Shown here in pieces: positions 2,914-58,260 of a stretch of 64,000 nt of DNA. The stretch's first letter is position 1. Each line of letters begins with the position of its first letter. The position numbers and the translations under genes were made by a program. This DNA comes from Phyto melanocephala (taxonomy: Eukaryota > Arthropoda > Insecta > Diptera > Rhinophoridae): positions 87,500,216 through 87,564,215 of the forward strand of contig OW799236.1 of NCBI GenBank assembly GCA_941918925.1, written 5' to 3'. The notes under the pieces were generated by a model. That model saw only the letters and a list, made by a program, of their open reading frames with translations, searched no databases and was not told where the DNA came from.

Positions 2914-5900
2914 GTAATTTAACAAACGAAATCTAGATATCCTGTTTTAATTATTTTCTTATTTAAAAATTAAATAAAAATTGACAAACAACTGCCGTAT
3001 TCCTTAAAAATTATTTTAGGTTTGTTAAAGGCTCATTTGACAGATGTTGTACAAAAAGATGCCAAATAAACCTTTAATAAGCCTAAAATATTTTTTTTAT
3101 GAATACGGCAGAAAGTTTTTGATCTTGTTGCTTATGAAATTCTCTATTGGAAATCGATCCTGCAACATTATTCGCAAGAGCTTAAATCTGATTTTTTATA
3201 ATTTTTGTTGTTTAATTTTAATGACAATCTGAAATAGAGAAATACAGAAATATTATTCCATTAATGTTGTGTTGTATTTTACTTAGGTACAAATGACATA
3301 AATTTGGATTATTCAATTAATTTAATTTTCGAATTTTTTGTCATTCTGTCTGTCCATCTGAACTTGATTGGCTCAAAAACTGCTACACAGATTTTGATAA
3401 AATTTCATATGGAGAAATTTGATACCCCTTTTAACATAAAAGATATAAAACCAAGAAATGAGAAAATAAAAGGAATTGCAATAACAACAAACCACTTTTA
3501 ATATGCATTAACAACGATATTAGATACAATATAAAATATTTTTGGGGCCATTAATGCAGATTGGATTTACCTAACTTTTTATATATGTATATAACTTCAC
3601 TTTCTACAAAGCAATTCTGAATGAATTCTGAAGCAGTTGGAATTTTTTAAAAACTGATTTTCGAATTTTTCAAATAATTGAATTTTAAAATATCCCGGTA
3701 ATTGTTTGAAAATAATTTATACCACAAAATATATTTTTAATTTACAGGGCTTAAAAAAAAGACTTTAACAATTTTTTTTTAAATTTTTATTCAAAATTAG
3801 TAAATATAATTTTTAATGAAATAATATAAAACAAAAATAGTAAAAGAAAAGTTATATTCTTAATAACGGGTGGGTCATCTATCTTTCTATAATATAAGTC
3901 TACATAAATCTATTAAATATTAATGGCATTTTATTTGGGCTTTTTTTTTTTTTTCTTTAAAATTTATGTTTACCTAGATCATCTGCCAAGAACTGACCTT
4001 AATAAGTAAAAATATTTAAAAAGTGTTTGTATACATATGAACCTGCTTTAATTATTATCTTATTCTTTAATTATATTTTTTTGTAGTCCAATACGTTACA
4101 TGGCAAATAGGAATGATTATTATCACTACATAAATGACGACTACGAACGTACTTTGGAAAACGCAAAATCTATCACATTAAAGTGTCTGAACAACAAGTT
4201 ATACGTCAATGAATTGGCTTCATCTCAAGAAATATTTGAGTGTTCAAGACTTCAGTGGAGTATTTACGATGCGAATGACACGTTTGAATGGTGTGAGATA
4301 AATCCAAATGCCAAAACATTTTTACTAGCTACCAAATCCAGTGAAGATCATCACATATTGGCTGGTATTTGTTTCAATTTGAATGGATGGAGTTTACAGG
4401 CGATAACATATAATGTCACCAGCTCCACACAAAAACACAATAACGATATGGCATGTATTTACTAACACTCAATGACTCTTTATATTTAGTGCCTTATTAA
4501 TAAAACCATGATTTTCTACAAAGTTCTTTTTTAAAAATTAAATATTTATTCAAATTTTAGGTTAAAGATATTACGAAAACCGATTTAAAATCTTATCAAT
4601 CATTGGGTGATGATCTTTTGAACTTGGAAACGACCATGAATTTTCATCTATCGTAAGTGCACTTAATATTTTTCATACAGGGGTCACAAATTTTACACAA
4701 TTATTTTTTTTAATAAAAAAAAAAATCTGTATTAATGTGTTTTTATACCCTTCACACAGTGAAAAAGGGTATATATAGGTTTGTCATTCCGTGTGAAATT
4801 TCTAAAATTTTCATTTCCGTCCCCATAAAGTATATATTTTCTGAAAGCTTCTGAATAGGGGAGTCGATTAAGCTCTGTCAGTCTGTCCGTGTGTATGTTG
4901 AAATCAACTTTTTGAGGCCCCCCGACATCGCTTGAACCCGGGTGAGGTATTAAAATATCAAAAATATTCGGGAGCAGATTGGTATTGAAAACCAGAAACA
5001 TCGGTACATAAACAACTGAGATATGAGCAGAAACCCACGACCACCTCGATTTTTTTTCACAAAAACAACATTATAACAACAACATACAAACGTGTATACT
5101 GGCTAGAGTAGACGTGGCATGGAATCCCAGCTGAGCCAAAGAAAATTTTTTTTTATTTTTTTATATTCTTTTTTCAATTTTTTTTATATTTTTTTTTTAT
5201 TTTTTATTTAATATATTATTTATATTTTTATTATTGTTTTTTTTTAATTTTTTTTTATTTATTTTTTTTAATATTTTTTTATTAATTTTTTTTTGTTTTA
5301 TATTTATTATTTATATTTTAATTAATTTTTTTTTTAATTTTTTTTTTTTTTATTTTTTTTTTTTTTTTACATACATACGTAAATTTTTAATTTTACAATT
5401 GGATGTTTTTATATATGTATGTTTTTTATATATGTATGTACATACGTATTTCATATGAGATGAATGGTGATACAAACTACTGTTATTGCATGACTAAACG
5501 TTGTGAAGGGTATATAAGATTCGGCACGGCCGAATATAGCACTCTTACTTGTTTCATTTTTAATTGAATGAAGTAAAATTGGCCTGAGGAAAAATTTAAT
5601 TTCAAATTAATTATGAGGGATCAAAGTTTTAATATTTTTTTTAAATTGTTTTACAATAAATTCGTACAAAAGTATTCTTCTTCATTCACGTAACTAACTC
5701 TAAATGATTTTTAAAATTTGGCAACACTTTACACTTTACAGAGAGAGCCAACTGCAAGAACAATTGAGACAATTAGGTGAAACTAATTTATGGCTACATC
5801 TGGCCACCTACGAAATGTCATCTATTGTCCAGGGCAATTCATATATTAATTATTTTAAGGAATACGCCAATATTTTAAATACAATATGGTGGCGCAATTT

Positions 5901-8900
5901 ACGTTTGGGTAATTGGAAACTCTTTCTAAACACCTTGGAAAATTATGCCCACAGCAATAGTTTTCAACTGTATACGGGAACATCTGGCGCTGTTAAGGTA
6001 CCCACAAATAATTTCGGAGAATCTAATGTGCTGAAAATAAAGGTAATTATTGAAATATTTATTAATATCTAATACAACTGATATATGCTTGGTAATCGCT
6101 ATTAATACCAATACCGATGATATTCTATGAGGCAATGAAATCGCTACGCACAAATAAATAAATGGATTCACATTAGGGATGCAACTTTTTTACAATTTTT
6201 GAAAATATCAAAATGTGCCTATCCATACAATGTAGTGCATAAAAAAACAATAAGAACTATTGAAGTTTTTAGATTGTGATTTTGATTACAATCATATAAT
6301 TACATTAAGAAATGTAAATACAGTCGTGTCTGAATATAGTGAACACCCGATATAGTGAACACCTCCATATAGTGAACACCAAAATTTTTGCAAATAATAC
6401 TCTAAATAGTGAAAAACTCTAATAGTGAACAAAATTTTGAAAACAACTTCAACAACAATTGTTTTATTTAACTTAAATAAGTATGTTCATATATTTCCAT
6501 TTTTGTACAAATTGTTTCTAATCAGCTATTGCATTTACATGTATGTATTTTTAGTAAATAAAACGAGTTTTTGAACAAACATTTCAACCTTGATATATAG
6601 AACAACCTGGATACTATAAACAAGCCTTGCAAAAATTGGTTCACTATATCCAGACACGACTGTAGTCAAATAAATAAAAAATAAAAAATTTTGATAAAAT
6701 AAAAAAAAAATCTTAAAGGGCTTTCGGAAATCGGATTCGATGCGGAACGTTTTTGTTCCGAATCGACCTGAGGAAACATTTTGCGGTTTCAGCACGACGT
6801 CGGCTACAGCGTGGTGATAGGTCCTTATTTTGGTTGTACCCCTAATTCACATTTGAGTCAGAAAAATTTCTTACATAATTATTTGAGATAAATGCGTTTA
6901 TAACCTGTTTTACTGCACAAATATGTAGTCCGCAGTAGCTGTAGTAATTCATCAGACGAGTCTGATATTGAATCGCATCAATTACATCTCTTTCGGAAAA
7001 ACATAGATCAAAATGTGCAAAGCAGTGCTTCTAACAATTCATCAGATGAGCCTCACATGAACTCGTGTAAATTACAAAACTAGATGTGTGATTATGAAAT
7101 TTTGCAAACATTGCTTACTGGTCAAACGCCTTGCACTCGCCGAAAATAAATTAGATACGCCGACCTTTACACCCACCCCCCATATAACGCTTTATCTCAA
7201 ATTCGTATAATTTCTATATGAATAAAGATTTTGGAATAATAAAGGACTATATTGAATTATCTAAGTTAAATTTAATAGCAGAAACTATTTCAACACGCCT
7301 ACTATAACGCTCTTTTTTCACGTAATATACTGTTAATGAAATTTAAAATCTCATAAAAGCGACAATATTAGAGGTATGATGCTGAAATTTCGCACATATA
7401 AGCTATATGTAGTATATGCTAGACAATGTCATTGTTGTGCCAGAAATAAAAGGTGACACGCCCACTTTAACGCTTACCTCCCACATAATGCTTTATCTTA
7501 AATTCATATAATTCCTATATGGAGAAAGTTTTTGGAAGAATAAGGCACAGCCGAATGTAGTGATCTTACTTGTTTGATTTAAAAATAACTTGGTAAAAAT
7601 ATATATAAAAGAAACACTTACAATTTAAAGAAAGTTTTATTTGATATTATCTGAAATGATTTTTTTTAAGAATTTATTTAAGCATCCAAAACATTAATGA
7701 AAATCCCTGTTAAGTTTTTATTAGTGTTGTTTCTGCTACTAATGCTAATGTGATTTATTTTTCATCTGCTTATTTTTATTTTTTGGCAAAATTTTGGAAC
7801 AATTAATGTGTATTTGGTATAATTTTGCTATCAAGGCGGTTCATTATTATTCAGATCTTAACGTTGCACAGAGGAGTATTTGACCTCAAAAGCTGGCCAA
7901 AAAGGCAAACTGAATTTTAAGAAATCTTAAAAACTAAGTACGCAGCTCGACAGACAACAATATTTTACATTATATTGTAAATTTTCAAGACTTTTAGTTG
8001 CGATTTGTAGCTCTGAGACCCTGCTAAAGTCAGGAAAGTGAAGAAAATTATATGAGATTTAAATGTTTTTTTCGGTTTCTGGATGTTTATTTGTTATTTT
8101 TTTTTTTGCGGCCAAACGAATAAAGGTTTAACAATAATTTTTTTTCGCTGAAAGGTTTGATCAAAAAAAAATAAAAAGAAGAAGTTTTTGAAAGTGAGGT
8201 TAGCATCTCTACGAATTATGTTTGATACCACAATAAAACCTGGAATCTCTAATTTTAGAAACAAAAAAAAGCTTGCGCAAGTTTGCGCCATTATTTTTGA
8301 CGATTTTTTAAAATTTTCACATTTCTTCCATTTTTGCTCATCAAGCACCTTTTCTTATAGATTTATATCGTCATAAACTTTTATGTATTTTTTTTTATTG
8401 ATTTAAACTGTTATTCACATCACTTTTAACACTTAACAATGTTAATACCTGCCTTTAATTATAAATTTGAACATTTCTTTATTACCCATAATAGTTATAA
8501 GGGAATTCCCCATACATGCCCATAAAGGATATTTTTATATACCTGCTCTACAAAATATTATTTGTTAAAAAAATAAATATACGTACCTTATAAGACAAAT
8601 TATTAAAAGCATTTATCACAAAAATAAGTTTTAAAAAAATAAATACAGGTAAAAACAAAAAAAAATACATGGGCACCCAGGTATCAGGCTACCATCCAAT
8701 TAACGCATAAGAGCATGCGCTTGAAAATAATTATAAAGGGTTATTGCACACAATCTTTATCAAAACCGTTCTGTAACTTCGAGAGTCAACATGGAACAAG
8801 TTTTCACAAGCTATTCCAAATAGTGATAAAATCTAATGCTGGAACCATTGACGAGAAATTGGATTTTTTGGTCAGAAAATTGAGCAAAATGTCAAGGGGA

Positions 8901-11900
8901 TGGGGACATATTAGCACTGAAGCAGTATTTAAAAAATTTAAAAAATTGTTGCAAAAGATATTGGCTTTTGGCACAGCGTAAAGAGGACCGCTTTTTAAGC
9001 ACAAACGCTAAATGGCTGGAAGGAACTGTAACAATACCAGTATTTGGCAGTTCGTCTTCAGGACGACCACGAAAAAAATTTAATGCAGCTAGTGAAAGAA
9101 CAATGCGAAGAAAAACGGAAGAAGTTCGTAACCAATTAACAACAGAGAAGATCACATTTGCTGCATCCATGAGTCAAAGAGCAGCGGGACATAATAATGC
9201 GGCTAAGTTAATAATGGATATAACGAGATCCCCAAGAAAAGCAAGAACTTGCAAGCAATCATTAACAACTTCTGAAGTCAACCCTGTGAATAAAGGAAAG
9301 GAAAGGAGCTTTGGCACTGTTTGTAAATGCAGAGCTCACGAAAAAGCAATATGAAATTTTATACAATGCCAATAAAAATGTGTATCCATGTTACTCATTA
9401 CTCATGCAAAAAAAAAATGTTGTCCCAATGAAGATGCCACAACCGTTAGCGAAACATTAGCGGAAGTCAAGCTCCAAGCTCTTCTCGACCATACAACAAC
9501 ATTTTTATGTATATGCCTTGAAGAGGTTTTGCAGCAGTTTAAACCTTTAAAATCAACATTTGTTAATTGAGTTTTACTATTTATACCGACTTTTATTCCT
9601 TAGGAATGTGGCTTTTGGAAAAATTTGAAAAATTTAAATTTTTGGTTCTTAAATTTTTTTTATGGCATTTTGAAAACAAAAAATTTGACGAATTTTGCAG
9701 AAAAAATTTTTTTTCGCCATTTAATTTTTAATAACTTCGAAATAGTAATAGATAGAAAAGAAATGTGTTTAGTTAGCTTAAGTAAAATTTTCCGGTGCAT
9801 CTTCTGATCCTCCTCCTAATAAAATCGGAAAACTCGTTTACAAGTTATGATTAAATATATTAGGCAACCCAATAATTTAGGGGGTGAAATATGCCACGCC
9901 TTTAAAATCAAATCCTTACGTACTAGAGAAAAACGGAAAACAGATTTGAATTAAAGGAATCAAATTTTTTCAAAATCTGCTTTTAGATTTCTTATATCAT
10001 ACTACAACTAAAACTATCAGAAAACCAGAACTTTTAATTCAAAAAACAAATTTAATAATTTTGGCCAGCTTTTCAAGTCAAATACCCCTCTGTGCGTTGT
10101 AATGTATCATTAGATAAGACGTATGTATCATTTAACAGTATAACAAACTTTTGATTTCTTTTACAAAACTTTAAGGAATTAAAAACAAGTAAGAGCACTA
10201 TATTCGGCTGTGCCGAATCTTTTATACCCACCAACAATTTTGTGTGCATTTAAAGCACAATATTTATTATTTTGTTAATCGCTATGGAATAATCTCTTTA
10301 TAATAAAATATGTATCACTTTCTTTGTAGAGGTTGGTTAAATTTTAAGGGCCCATGTTAAGGTAAACTACACCTAGTCTTTAAATTTGTTTTCTGCATTT
10401 CATTTGACATTTCTCAATCTCAAACTTACTCAATTTGATCCGTGGAAAGATACGCAAATGAGCAACGCTTTAAAGTTATTCAGGTTTTTTATAAAAATGG
10501 ACGTTCAAATCAAAATGCATTTTGTGCACTTCTTGATTCTTTTGGTCAACATAATCGTTCAAATTCATCCACAATCGGGAGAATTGTAACAAATATTTAA
10601 ATTTCTGCAAAACAGGTCTGTATAAAATGTTAGAAAATCTGTGAATGCTTTCTTAGTTCGTTGAATGGGAACCACTGCTGGTTTTTGCGATAGTGTGGCA
10701 AAAGAGCAGTCAACCTCGACTCATCATCATGCCCAACAATTGAGCATAAACCTTTTTATTGAAAATTTGGATCATCAGATAGAGGAGTGGCGCCAAGGAT
10801 GGGGGGACCATTTGGCCGATATTTTGTTAAATACATAATTGAACCATACAAATATTATAATTACAAAAAGGAATACTAATAATATCCTAAATAATTTGTG
10901 TTTTATTTAAATTCAACATCGGTCCTTAAAATTTAACCACCCTTAATAACTTCGATATGCTACTAAAATGCTTTTGTAAATGTAGTCTTTTAGTAAAAGT
11001 GGGCGTTAAGGTAGAATGTCAATAAAGTTTCTGCTAATAAATACAACTTAGATATTTCAATATAGTCCTTTATTTTCCCAAAAACTTTGTCAATAGAGAA
11101 ATTACATGAATTTAAGATAAACCGTTATATGGGAAGTTGGCGTTAAAGTGGGCGTGTCACTTACACTTTTTGGCACAACAATAACATTGATTAGAAAAAT
11201 ATATGTAGCAAATTTCATCATCATACCTCTAATTTCATCGGTTTTATGAGCTTTTAAATTTCATTAACGGTAGATAACGTGAAAAGTGGGCGTTATAGTA
11301 GTCGTGTCAAAGTTATTTTTGCTGATGAGTACAACTTAGATATTCCAATATAGTCCTTTATTATTCCAAAATCTTTATTAATAGAGAAATTATATGAATT
11401 TTAGTTAAATCTTTATATGGGAGGTGGGCGTAAAAGTTGGCGTGGAACCTTAAATTTTTGGCACAGTAATGACATTGCCTAGAGGGATATACGTAGCAAA
11501 TTTTTGTCATCATACCTCTAATTTTGGCGGTTTTATGAGCTTTTAAATTTCATTAACGGTCGATAACGTGAGAAGTGGGCGTTATAGTAGGCGTGTCAAG
11601 TTGTTTTTGCGAATGAAGCGTCTCACCAAAAAGCAAAGTGTGCAAAATTTCAGAGTCGTACATCTAATTTTATTGCTTTTATGACGTTTTTGTTTTTAAA
11701 TATACCGAAAAATACACTGTGCGGTATAAATTTTCGTACATTTTGATTAATAACTCCTAATGCATAGATTTTGATAATTTTCGGGGAAAGATATTGTTTT
11801 TACTCAGGAAATATATACTCGAAGTTTCATGAGTCTACGTTAATGCGTTTGGACACAATTCCATCTTATTCGATGTTCGATGGACACGTTTTTTTCGACC

Positions 11901-14753: not shown

Positions 14754-15434
14754 TTATACCCTTCACCTGTGGTGCACAAGGGTGTATATATATAGCTTTG
14801 TCATTCCGTTTGTAATTTCTACAATTTTCATTTCCGACCCCATAAAGTATATATTTTCTGAAAGCTTATGAATAGAGGAGTCGATTAAGCCCTGACCGTC
14901 TGTCCGTCTAGCCGCCTGTGCGTGTGTTGGTTGAAATCAACTTTAGAAGCAACCATATATTCCTCAGATCTGTGTATGGTATCAGTCTTTCGGAAATATC
15001 CGGGACTGAATCGACCACCTCGTTTTTTTTTCACAATTACAACAACAACATACATATATACTAATTAGAGTAAACGTGGCATCGAATCCCAGCTGAGTCA
15101 AAGAAAATGTGTCTTTATTTAATTTTTTTATTTTATATATTATTTATATTTTTATAATTTTTTTTTATTATATTTTTTTTAATTTTTAAAAAATTTTTTT
15201 TTAATTTTTGTTTGTAATTTTTTGTTTGTTTTTAATCCTTTTTTATTTTTTTTTTTTGTAATTTTTTTTCAATTTATAATTCTGCAATGGGATGTTTTTT
15301 ATGTATGTTTTTTACATGTATGTACGTATTTCATATGAGATAAATGATGATACAAACAATTGTTATTGCATGACTACATGTTGTGAAGGGTATATAAGAT
15401 TCGGCACGGCCGAATATAACACTGTTACTTGTTT
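14754..15434 (+). repeat. Family B repeat inside the hexokinase-like pseudogene
   Basis: Starts TATACCCTTCACCTGTGGTG and ends with GATTCGGCACGGCCGAATA and GTTACTTGTTTT. The middle has a TTTTA-rich tract like the copy at 4741. Coding-like sequence for hexokinase touches both edges, so the insertion is in the former coding region or in an intron of it. Confidence 0.87.
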
Positions 15435-16240
15435 TCTTTAGGCTTTGATATGCCCAATTTGACAAATATTAAGCACATGTGATCGATACTGCCTTCATCC
15501 TCTTTTAACATGTCACTGATATGCCTACTTGTAAAGGAGAATGCATATTGTAAAGTTTCACTTATGTAACCTTCAAATAGAACTGCTTCATTAACACATT
15601 GTAAGAACACCTGACGCGCTAGTTCTCCTATATATAAACACGTTATAAGTTTCTCAAATTTGTGTTGATTTTTATTCCAGGATACTTGATCAACCTTTTC
15701 ATCACACTCAGTACGTATGGGATCCAAATTGCCATTTGTTCCAAACTCACTCCATGGTGTGTTTACTATCGCATTGGCTAGGGATGTTTGCTGCAAACTA
15801 GATACATTTTCGGAGACATGTTCAACGTACACCGCACTGCAGTCAGTGCCAATATTCACTGCTTTTTTACAATCTTCTCCTTGCCAACTATTTGCTAGCA
15901 ATATGGCTTTACTATTACTCAGTTTTGATTCTACAGATACTCGTAAATCCTGGGTGCGTCTTATAGCGTTTTGAATAAGTTCAACTACCTTCTTTGGCTG
16001 CAAGGTGGGCATATTAAAATTGTTGCCTAAATTTTGCAAAACCATGTGTTTTACACAAAGCGACATGCTTAAGTGTTCCCTATGGAGACTGTGACGTTTT
16101 AAAGACTTTCCTAAATGTTCCATCAATAAGTGATTTTTAAACATATTATGATTAATTGTAAATGAAATATGTTTAAATATTTTAAATAAATTGTGTTTAA
16201 TTTTCCCCCCTTTGAACTTATTATGTTTAATTTCGATCAT

Positions 16241-17282
16241 TTTTTTAAATTTAATAAAAAATCATTGACGATATGTAGTTATCTTAAACGGAAAAAGTGC
16301 TAAGTCCATTTTTTTCAAATTATTCAGGAGAGACAAAAAACTATCTAAGTTTTTTTTAAGTAGGCTTTCTGAAAATCTGTAAATGCAGTTGTTTCCCTTA
16401 GTCTATCCTCTTAATTACCAGTAGTACTATGATTTTAAAATAAATCCTTAGCGGTCTTATAGGCTTTTTTGGACTCAGCATATTTGCTCTTTGAAATTTC
16501 ATTATTTTAGTAGGGATGTTTTCCTTAAATATGTTTTCTTTTATTTCTGAAATTTAATTTAAGGAATTGTTCCTTATGTAGCCTAATTCGTTACAGCGGT
16601 GTTCGATGTAACCAAAAAAGCTCAATAAAACTAAAAGAAGTAAATGTATTTGGTGTTTGCAAGAATGTAGTTCTTTTATTGGTGTTGGTTGATAAACAAA
16701 ATATTAATTGGTTAACACTAAAAGAAGAATAAGAATTATTAGTTTAAAGAATAAAAAATAAAAAAGTAAATTTCTGTGATATAGGTAATATCCAATTGCT
16801 TAAAATTATACGATTATGCTGCATTCAATGGTGTATTTATTTTAAGCGGAAGCTTCCTGTGTTTAAAAAAAAATAAATGCAGAATACTTAGAAAAACAAA
16901 TCATAGATGAGGTAGATCATCATAACAACGGTGGTGGGGTTTGGGTAAAGTCAGTTTGAAAATTTTCAGATCTTCATGTTTTCTTGCCGTTATTTTCCTT
17001 CTTTCGTTGTAGAGTGGTTCTAAACTCGAAAAATGAATAGGTTTTATATTTTTATTTATTTTCTGTGGTAAGTTATTCCACTCTTCGGCGAAGCTTATAC
17101 TTTATTTCACAATTTGGTGTATATTTAATTGCACGACTATCCCTTACCTTGTGATCTCCTTTACCTCGTTCAGGCCGAATGCTTTTACAAATTTGCAAGG
17201 TGTTGACGTGTTTAAAAAATGAAAAGTTTTTGCCATTCACAAGCATTAATTTTTGAAAAAAAAAAGTTGTTAACTGTTAGTA
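16241..17282. other. No supported gene
   Basis: AT-rich sequence. A slightly GC-richer patch at 17030-17200 reads on the minus strand as SIRPERGKGDHKVRDSRAIK, which may be a relic of a retrotransposon, but I cannot place it. Confidence 0.4.
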
Positions 17283-20923: not shown

Positions 20924-21356
20924 TTTTATACCCTTCACACAGTGAAAAAGGGTATATATAGGTTTGTCATTCCGTGTGAAATTTCTACAATTTTCATTTC
21001 CGACCCCATAAAGTATACATTTTCTGAAAGCTTATGAATAGAGGAGTCGATTAAGCCCTGACCGTCTGTCCGTCTGTCCGTCTGACCGTCTGTCCGTGTG
21101 TATGTTGAAATCAACTTTTTGAAGCCCCCCGACATAGGTTGGACCCGGGTAAGGTATTAAAATATCAGAAATATTCGGGAGTAGATCGGTATTGAAAATC
21201 AGAAACATCGGTACATAAACAACTGAGATATGAGCAAAAACCCACGACCACCTCGATTTTCTTTTCATAAAAACAACATTACAACAACAACATACATACA
21301 TACAAACGTGTATACTGGTTAGAGAAAACGTGGCATCGAATCCCAGCTGAGGCAAA
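20924..21356 (+). repeat. Family B, 5' half
   Basis: Nearly identical to 4741-5150: the TATACCCTTCACACAGTG hairpin, CCCATAAAGTATACATTTTC, four CTGTCCGTCTGACCG-type pentamer units, and ACCCACGACCACCTCGATTT. It stops at an A-run next to a mariner remnant, so the 3' half is lost. Confidence 0.87.
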
Positions 21357-21371
21357 AAAAAAAAACATTAA

Positions 21372-34790: not shown

Positions 34791-34909
34791 AATGAAAATG
34801 AAAAATATTGGTTCAATCATAACAACAGCAAAAAAAGCAAGCGGTAAGTGATACATACTTACACATGTATTTATGTATGGATATGATGGTTATATTGTTG
34901 ATGCTTGTA

Positions 34910-35550
34910 CAGGGTGGACCAAAAGTCACGCCTGCGTGTAAAAATTTAATAACTTTTCTGTTTATTAATATTTTTTTTCAGATTTTATTCATCGATTCGT
35001 GTAACACCACCATGCAAAATTTAACGACTGAGCAACGAACGAAAGTGGTAGAATTTTACTTTTCCAATGGGCGCTCAATTTTACTGACGCAACGAGCATA
35101 TCGAAATTATTTCAACACCAGAAATGCACCTAACCAAACCACAATTAATAGTTTAATTGCACGATCAGGAAGACCAAGAATAATACAGAATCAAGTGAAC
35201 ATTGATCGTGTACGGGTCAGTGTTGCAGAATATTCAGGAACTTCAACGCGAAGACGTTCTGGACAACTGGGCATCTCTAGAACATCACTTCAACGTATTT
35301 TACGTCATTTAAACATGCATCCATACAAGGTCCAATTGACCCACGTGCAGTTATGCAAAACGCCTGTTTAAGAGCCCAATTGTGCATCGATGAAAATGGT
35401 GGTCATCTCTCTGACATTATTTTTCATAATTAAAATTTAGGTCATACAAAGATAATATTATAATTAAAAAAAAAAATTTTTATAAAAAATAATAATAAAC
35501 AAAAAAGTTATTCAATTTTTACACACAGGCGCGACTTTTGGTCCACCCTG
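34910..35550 (+). mobile_element. Mariner/IS630-type deletion derivative with near-perfect TIRs
   Basis: Ends CAGGGTGGACCAAAAGTC and its complement; about 35 bp of TIR with three differences, flanked by TA at 34908-34909 and 35551-35552. Contains the ORF at 35012-35371. High TIR identity suggests a fairly recent insertion or selection for end function. Confidence 0.93.
35012..35371 (+). pseudogene. Truncated mariner-like transposase, 119 codons
   Basis: Uninterrupted frame MQNLTTEQRTKVVEFYFSNG ... LGISRTSLQRILRHL ... YKVQLTHVQLCKTPV. It contains both N-terminal DNA-binding helix-turn-helix units (VVEFYFSNGRS...; LGISRTSLQRIL) and the linking RSGRPR motif. About 15 residues before RSGRPR, and the whole DDD/DDE catalytic domain, are deleted. 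The ATG at 35012 fits family starts; the open frame extends upstream to 34865 outside the element. A product could bind the TIRs without cutting (inference). Confidence 0.8.
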
Positions 35551-56500: not shown

Positions 56501-58260
56501 AGAACGATTAACTATTATAAGGATAATTTGAGTAGGGTACAAAATGATTCTAGAAAATATTGAAAGTTTATAAATCAGACTCTAGGAAGAGGTTCTAAGT
56601 CGGTAATTAATTTAAAAAAAGATGATGAGGAAGTTATAGTCAGGGATGAGTATAAAGCTGAACTTTAAAATAAATATTTTTTAACAAGTGTTTAAAATTT
56701 TAAAGACAATTTGAGGCATATTCAAGTGTTCATTTTAATAGTTTTAGAAAAATAAGGTATTGTTAAAATCAATTTAAGTTTACATATACATTTAATGAAG
56801 AACTTTTTGATTTATTAAGACAATTGGATACAAATAAAAGTGCAGGTGATGATGGAATTTCTGTAAAATATTTGCATGAGTGCAAAGATGTGCTTATACC
56901 TTACTTATCACAAATTTTGAACTCTATTATTGACTTTTCAATTTATCCAGATATTTTGAAAACACATAAAATTGTTCCAATTCCTAAGTTTATAAAACCA
57001 AGTGTTGTTGAGAATAAAAGACCAATAGCTTTGTTATCTGTAATTGATAGAGTTTTTGAAAAAGCTTTTTTTAATCAACTTTCGACATTTTTTAACAATG
57101 AATCGTTAATATATCCTAATCGATATGGACTTCGTAAAGGTTGTGGTACAGATGAGGCAGTGATATATGTTATTAATTATATATGAGATTGTTTGGACAA
57201 AGGTTTTACAGGTGTATGTGGTATGTTTTATGACACTTCTAAAGCCTTCGATCTTATGGATCATAAAATTTTGATGGAAAAACTAGATTTTCTTGGTGTA
57301 GGAGGAAGTAATGCAGCATTACTGAAAAGTTGTTTGGGAAATCGGAAACAATTTGTTCAGATAAATGCTAGCAAAAGTTTGATAGGTTATGGAGTATGAG
57401 TATGGAGTTCCTCAAGGGAGTGTTTTAGGACCTTTACTGTTCACTCTGTATATAAATGATATAAATAATTTGTGTTCAAATGGAAAAATATTTCTTTAAG
57501 CAGATGATATTTGTCTTTTTTACCCGTATAAGGAAGATTTGATAATACAAATTTTTGTTGAGCGTGACGCAGCTTTAATTTCAGAGTATGCTAAATTTAA
57601 TAAACTTGTGTTAAATGCTGGTAAAACCCAGTTCATACGATTTAGACCAAAACCGAATCGCAATAGATCTAATATTAATATTTTCGTGGATGGAAAGAGA
57701 ATATTAGAGGTTGAAACTGTAAAATATTTGGGAGTCTACATGCAGAGTAATTTATCGTGGCACCAACATATTCAAATGCTGAAATCTAAAATATCGCCAG
57801 CGTTAGGAATTTTATTCAAACTAAAAAATAATTTAGATATAAAAACTAAAAATATAATTTTCCAGACATTAATACAAAGTAACTTGAACTACTTGCCAAT
57901 AGTATGTAGTTTCCGAAGAAACTCAGATGTAAAAGCTTTACAGATAATTCAAAATAAATCGCTTAAAGGTATCTATAATCTTCATCAAAGATTTTCTACA
58001 TAATTACCCGTTTATGAATTGTATAAAATGCAGTTACTAATTTATGTATATAAAGCTGTAGATAATATTGGTCATCATACAATTAAATTTTTTATTAACC
58101 AAATGTTTTTTAGCACTAGAAGTAGCCGTAACCTCAGAACAGAAAATAGAATATATAGGTAGTTTGAAATATAACAGATTGTCTCAATACATAAAAGATT
58201 GTTCTACAATTCCATTGTTTAAACTTTGATTACAAGAATATTTATTACAAAACATTGAAA
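56500..58260 (+). pseudogene. Non-LTR retrotransposon reverse transcriptase
   Basis: Successive plus-strand frames cover most of an RT domain: a thumb-proximal lead (RKYWKVINQTLGRGSKS), LDTNKSAGDDGISVKYLHEC, IVPIPKFIKPSVVENKRPIA, FYDTSKAFDLMDHKIL (motif A Asp), GVPQGSVLGPLLFTLYIND (motif B) and ADDICLFYPY (motif C with both catalytic aspartates). Then LNAGKTQFIRFRPKP and VKYLGVYMQSNLSWHQHI follow. Broken by stops at 57184, 57397, 57498 and 58001 and a GAGTAT duplication at about 57394. CR1/Jockey-like by motif spacing (tentative). The endonuclease domain is absent, so the copy is 5'-truncated. It abuts a family A end. Confidence 0.87.

What the first reader, a model, noticed from the sequence alone, without database searches (positions are those of the whole stretch)
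7862..10099. Transib/RAG-like transposon with CGTTG duplication and an unusual coding remnant
Seen: 34-bp inverted ends starting CACAGAGG, exact 5-bp direct repeats CGTTG outside them, and a broken 280-codon frame. Known: Transib elements have CAC-starting ends and 5-bp duplications, and RAG1/RSS derive from that superfamily. Inference: this element belongs there, yet its protein resembles an uncharacterised multicopy arthropod/hydra family. If right, it links that family to Transib/RAG-type ends.
Basis: partly seen in the sequence, partly recalled or inferred. Interest (0 to 1): 0.85.

Follow-up and report, generated by a model that had tools for sequence, protein, structure and literature searches.

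The report
Crippled Transib jumping gene copy
This is a dead copy of a Transib transposon, the kind of jumping gene from which the antibody-gene enzyme RAG1 is thought to descend; it has lost the cutting part of its enzyme and was probably copied around its host genome by enzymes made elsewhere, which is ordinary for such elements.

Summary
The element spans 7867-10094 (2228 bp), with 36-bp inverted ends (33/36 matching) starting CACAGAGG and exact CGTTG repeats at 7862-7866 and 10095-10099. I fetched 39 further copies from the host assembly. Of 26 copies with both ends found, 19 have exact 5-bp duplications, 6 differ at one base, 1 does not match; none is exact at 3, 4, 6, 7 or 8 bp. The duplications favour CGWCG; printed Transib preference is CGNCG. 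The coding remnant (8791-9539) is residues 1-257 of a Transib transposase: its nearest full-length relative, P0002, matches HzTransib at 2e-121, and a longer copy with the same ends, L048, matches HzTransib directly. The window copy lacks 1135 bp of L048, so everything after residue 257, catalytic residues included, is gone; 16 of 39 other copies share that junction. It is a non-autonomous deletion derivative, probably mobilised in trans. New member of a known kind; low interest.

The parts
7862..7866 (.). 5-bp target site duplication CGTTG, left copy
7867..7902 (+). left terminal inverted repeat, starts CACAGAGG
   Evidence: left 95 bp found at 39 other places at 98-99% identity
7903..8790 (+). 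5' non-coding part of the element; 96% identical to L048 over the first 300 bp, then about 92% after a 98-bp gap relative to L048
8791..9539 (+). broken remnant of a Transib transposase gene, N-terminal residues 1-257 of about 670 (tblastn: residues 39-257 of P0002 at 52% identity), frameshifted
9536..9539 (+). junction of a 1135-bp internal deletion relative to L048, with 4-bp microhomology AGTT; everything coding after residue 257 is missing
9540..10058 (+). 3' non-coding part of the element (93% and 90% identical to L048 in two blocks, with a 77-bp gap between)
10059..10094 (-). right terminal inverted repeat
10095..10099 (.). 5-bp target site duplication CGTTG, right copy

Best explanation
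A non-autonomous, internally deleted copy of a Transib-superfamily cut-and-paste DNA transposon. A longer parent (about 3.5 kb, ends CACAGAGG, one transposase gene) lost 1135 bp between two AGTT microhomologies; this removed everything after residue 257, the DDE catalytic core included. The derivative was then amplified by transposase supplied in trans: the transposase binds the ends, cuts at CAC, and inserts into CGWCG-like sites, making 5-bp duplications. Shown: ends, duplications, target preference, homology to HzTransib through longer copies and relatives, shared deletion junction, a frameshift shared by several copies. Inferred: the order deletion-then-amplification, mobilisation in trans, and the cutting chemistry (from HzTransib and RAG).
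For: 26 two-ended copies: 19 exact 5-bp duplications, 6 with one mismatch, consensus CGWCG, against printed CGNCG for Transib (passages). P0002, 67% identical to the searched N-terminal query, matches HzTransib at 2e-121, RAG1L and RAG1 weakly, and Pfam RAG1 at 26.5 bits, cut-off 25. L048, with the same ends and a CGGCG duplication, is 89.6-95.7% identical to the window element in four blocks, and its frames match HzTransib directly, 4.7e-6 (N-terminal) and 2.2e-48 (core). The 1792/2928 junction occurs in 16 of 39 other copies plus the window; a second deletion type (939/2680) in 14 of 39, one more within 2 bp. 0 of 19 copies examined keeps one open frame over residues 1-257; 8 of 19 share the same shifted reading.
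Against: No intact autonomous copy of this family was seen: the four closest pieces that I fetched (L048-L051) are broken, and only L048 shows the ends. The window's own fragments match no Pfam family above cut-off (four fragments), and the one fragment searched against the PDB, like P0001, finds no Transib; the link runs through relatives. 1 of 26 end pairs matches at 1 of 5 bases, and 14 of 40 loci gave no end pair with my strict patterns. Of seven relatives given to hmmscan only P0002 passed the RAG1 cut-off; P0045 and P0063 fell below it and P0003, P0004, P0006 and P0020 showed no RAG1 match at E 0.1. PF26100 is precomputed for 25 of the 64 proteins, but hmmscan listed it for none of the seven, and no call says what PF26100 is.
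Confidence: 0.95

Rival explanations
1. The N-terminal-only remnant is kept by selection as a truncated DNA-binding protein that represses Transib movement or serves the host.
For: The deletion stops shortly before the first catalytic Asp (residue 274 of P0002), and many copies keep the same N-terminal stretch. N-terminal-sized proteins of 285-390 aa occur among the named insect relatives (P0015, P0016, P0019, P0022, P0024), though these may be gene-model fragments.
Against: 0 of 19 copies examined (17 with the window's junction, 2 with its left side) has an unbroken frame over residues 1-257, the longest aligned open span being 219 residues; 8 of 19 share a shifted reading. A second subfamily amplified with a C-terminal piece only.
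Confidence: 0.03
2. A RAG-like (RAGL/TransibSU, RAG1L-RAG2L) transposon rather than a Transib proper.
For: CAC ends and 5-bp duplications are common to both (passages). P0002 has weak matches to RAG1L and RAG1.
Against: P0002 scores 409 bits with HzTransib against 33 with RAG1L and 23 with RAG1. In the longer copy L048 (3563 bp) no open frame of 60 aa or more within the element, other than the transposase pieces, exceeds 132 aa; introns were not considered and no RAG2 model was run.
Confidence: 0.02

Closest known systems
HzTransib (active Transib of Helicoverpa zea, PDB 6PQN and others)
   Same: Same transposase family: P0002 E = 2e-121 over residues 175-653, and this genome's own copy L048 4.7e-6 (N-terminal frame) and 2.2e-48 (core frame). 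The entry is titled 'Putative DNA-mediated transposase' in the PDB table; that 6PQN is HzTransib is recalled. 5-bp duplications as in Transib (passages).
   Different: The window copy is broken and lacks the catalytic core. Its ends read CACAGAGG. The four closest longer pieces read in this genome are broken too.
RAG1/RSS and RAGL (ProtoRAG) transposons
   Same: Shared ancestry of the catalytic core, CAC at the ends, 5-bp duplications.
   Different: Only marginal sequence match (23-33 bits). No RAG2-like gene seen in L048 (no RAG2 profile run).

Membership tests
Transib superfamily | 5-bp target site duplications | tested here: met
   19 of 26 two-ended copies exact, 25 of 26 within one mismatch, 0 exact at 3, 4, 6, 7 and 8 bp
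Transib superfamily | insertion preference CGNCG (printed: PMC4735498, PMC5704228, passages) | tested here: met
   among 19 exact duplications: C 16, G 15, A or T 17, C 12, G 14 at positions 1-5; as a preference, not a rule: the window's own CGTTG departs at position 4
Transib superfamily | terminal inverted repeats starting CAC | tested here: met
   window; copies. The CACWATG consensus of Transib ends is recalled; CACAGAG does not fit it beyond CACA
Transib superfamily | transposase homologous to HzTransib | tested here: met
   through P0002 and this genome's L048; the one window fragment searched alone gives no PDB match to Transib
Transib superfamily | DDE catalytic triad (HzTransib D126, D225, E436, passage of PMC6941560) | tested here: not met
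   absent from the window copy, as expected of a deletion derivative. Present in P0002 at D274, D381, E589; in this genome's nearest relatives only in parts: both Asp motifs in L050, second Asp motif in L048, Glu motif in L051 (motif scan). So it is filed as a non-autonomous derivative, not as an autonomous Transib
RAGL (RAG1L-RAG2L) transposon | convergent RAG2-like gene | tested here: inconclusive
   ORF list of L048 shows no second long frame within the element; no RAG2 profile was run

The most novel reading that the evidence does not exclude
The Transib families of this genome keep RSS-like ends: a CAC-type heptamer and an A-rich block 23 bp further in, on both ends, in three of four families examined. 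One of them, with perfect CACAGTG heptamers and two 99.8% identical copies (L052/L053), the first with an open 665-aa transposase, may still be mobile, and its ends could be cut by vertebrate RAG.
Probability: 0.15. Interest if true: 0.45.

Novelty: new member of a known kind. Interest (0 to 1): 0.2.

Why it matters
The genome is a rich Transib host (67 matches to P0002, a lower bound), with several families and two amplified deletion subfamilies, a fair place to study how non-autonomous Transibs arise and spread.

Tried and rejected
Direct searches with the window's own fragments (one in the PDB; four in Pfam) gave nothing above cut-off; the first protein search found only P0001, a close relative of similar length, and P0001 found nothing in the PDB. 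P0001 against viral contigs: 15 pattern matches, none a relative. A selected truncated repressor was considered and rejected on the broken frames. The RSS-like nonamer comparison gave 5-6 of 9 matches at spacer 23 in 8 of 10 ends (five elements, four families; the window and L048 are one family) and 3 of 9 in the two ends of L056. Against it: the window family scores the same 5-6 of 9 at spacer 12, L054's left end is best at spacer 24 (7 of 9), and the comparison was made after seeing the ends, in A-rich DNA, without a chance control; I treat it as weak. A count of all copies by end pattern could not be had, nor searches with the right end or the junction; 40 scored of 1393 first-look candidates is a lower bound. 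In the copy counts I dropped L001-L008, which are the same places as the window and L009-L015. The frame count covers 19 copies; three others with N-terminal pieces but other junctions (L016, L029, L031) were left out. Papers: passages seen in PMC4411706, PMC7204232, PMC8355894, PMC4735498, PMC5704228, PMC6941560; listings only for the searches. Kapitonov and Jurka 2005, looked up under a recalled id, is not held and was not read.

Full report
Observation. The window carries an element at 7867-10094 (2228 bp). Its ends CACAGAGGAGTATTTGACCTCAAAAGCTGGCCAAAA and, reversed, CACAGAGGGGTATTTGACTTGAAAAGCTGGCCAAAA match at 33 of 36 positions. It is flanked by exact CGTTG at 7862-7866 and 10095-10099. 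The coding remnant runs from an ATG at 8791 to the junction at 9536-9539 in shifted frames.

Copies. A search with the left 95 bp scored 40 of 1393 first-look candidates, and the 40 listed matches are 98-100% identical. I fetched the 39 places other than the window and looked for both ends with strict patterns. 26 of 40 loci (window included) gave a pair of ends, 14 did not (end changed or outside the stretch). Of the 26 pairs, 19 have an exact 5-bp duplication, 6 differ at one of five bases and 1 matches at one base only. Exact matches at other lengths: 6 at 2 bp, none at 3, 4, 6, 7 or 8 bp. The 19 exact duplications give C16, G15, A/T 17, C12, G14. Passages of two papers give CGNCG as the Transib preference (PMC4735498; PMC5704228).

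Protein. The window's fragments alone match no Pfam family above cut-off, and the one searched finds no Transib in the PDB. A query joined from P0001 and the window's remnant found 64 proteins with E of at most 1 among 513 candidates; 41 of 64 are 601-724 aa long, 25 of 64 carry the precomputed Pfam label PF26100, and one (P0045) is named V(D)J recombination-activating protein by a source. The best, P0002 (671 aa, 67% identity to the query), matches HzTransib (6PQN) with 409 bits, E = 2e-121, over residues 175-653; RAG1L (6B40) has 33 bits and RAG1 (3JBW) 23 bits. Of seven relatives given to hmmscan, P0002 alone passes the Pfam RAG1 cut-off (26.5 against 25 bits); P0045 and P0063 are below it, and P0003, P0004, P0006 and P0020 show no RAG1 match at E 0.1. 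PF26100 was listed for none of the seven there, and I have no call that says what it is. P0002 has the three acidic residues at 274, 381 and 589, in the places of HzTransib D126, D225 and E436 (residue numbers from a passage of PMC6941560).

Parent. The genome search with P0002 lists 67 matches (a lower bound): 63 at 37-50% identity, which look like other Transib lineages, and four pieces at 58-70%, which I fetched. One of these, L048, has the same ends and a CGGCG duplication around 3563 bp; in L049, L050 and L051 the end patterns were not found. The window element matches L048 in four blocks at 89.6-95.7%. It lacks L048's positions 1793-2927 (1135 bp) and two shorter stretches (98 and 77 bp); the main junction shows a 4-bp microhomology AGTT. 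L048's own frames match HzTransib directly: N-terminal 4.7e-6, core 2.2e-48. L048 is itself broken, with the part around the catalytic Glu missing, and L049-L051 are broken too.

Two deletion subfamilies. The 1792/2928 junction of the window occurs in 16 of 39 other copies; two more share its left side. A different junction, 939/2680, occurs in 14 of 39, one more within 2 bp; six have neither. The first type keeps residues 1-257, the second a C-terminal piece from residue 582 on. Of 19 copies of the first type (window included, and the two with only the left side) none has an open frame over 1-257, and 8 show the same shifted reading, scored by one short peptide string. So the copies most likely spread as non-coding passengers of a transposase made elsewhere; that is inference.

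Other families. I read the ends of three other Transib families of this genome. L052/L053: ends CACAGTG, duplications CGGCG and CGCCG, copies 99.83% identical over 2929 bp; L052 has a 665-aa open frame that matches HzTransib at 8e-113. L054/L055: CACTGCG and CACTATG, duplications CAATG and CTTTG. L056: CACATTG and CACAGTG, duplication CGTCG; for L057 the same script did not find the pair of ends. In three of the four families an A-rich block follows the heptamer after 23 bp on both ends; in the fourth it does not, and the window family scores as well at spacer 12. This is suggestive of RSS-like ends but was not tested against chance. A legend in PMC8355894 (passage) describes Transib ends with heptamer and nonamer-like parts, with 20-22-bp or 12/23 spacers, so the theme is in print.

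Verdict. The novelty claimed does not: the protein family is the Transib transposase family. The element is an ordinary non-autonomous Transib.

Noticed in passing
L052 and L053 (host contig 2, about 69.40 Mb and 89.62 Mb): A second Transib family with perfect CACAGTG heptamers on both ends, two copies 99.83% identical over 2929 bp, a 665-aa open transposase frame in L052: possibly still mobile.
   Followed up: partly
L054/L055 and L056: Two further Transib families with CAC ends and 5-bp duplications CAATG/CTTTG and CGTCG.
   Followed up: partly
L013, L014, L020, L022 and ten others: A second deletion subfamily of the window's family with a 939/2680 junction that keeps only about the last 60-80 residues of the transposase region from residue 582 on.
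   Followed up: partly
window 15428-16261 (-): Open frame matching Pfam Hexokinase_2 at 4e-25.
   Followed up: no
window 34823-35368 (+): Open frame with a DUF4817 helix-turn-helix match; looks like a mobile element piece.
   Followed up: no
window 56767-57183 (+): Weak reverse transcriptase match, below the Pfam cut-off; probable LINE remnant.
   Followed up: no
window 4732-5070 and 21032-21367 (-): Two similar translated stretches (SRWSW..HISVVYVPMFL), a dispersed repeat; no Pfam match for the first, the second not scanned.
   Followed up: no
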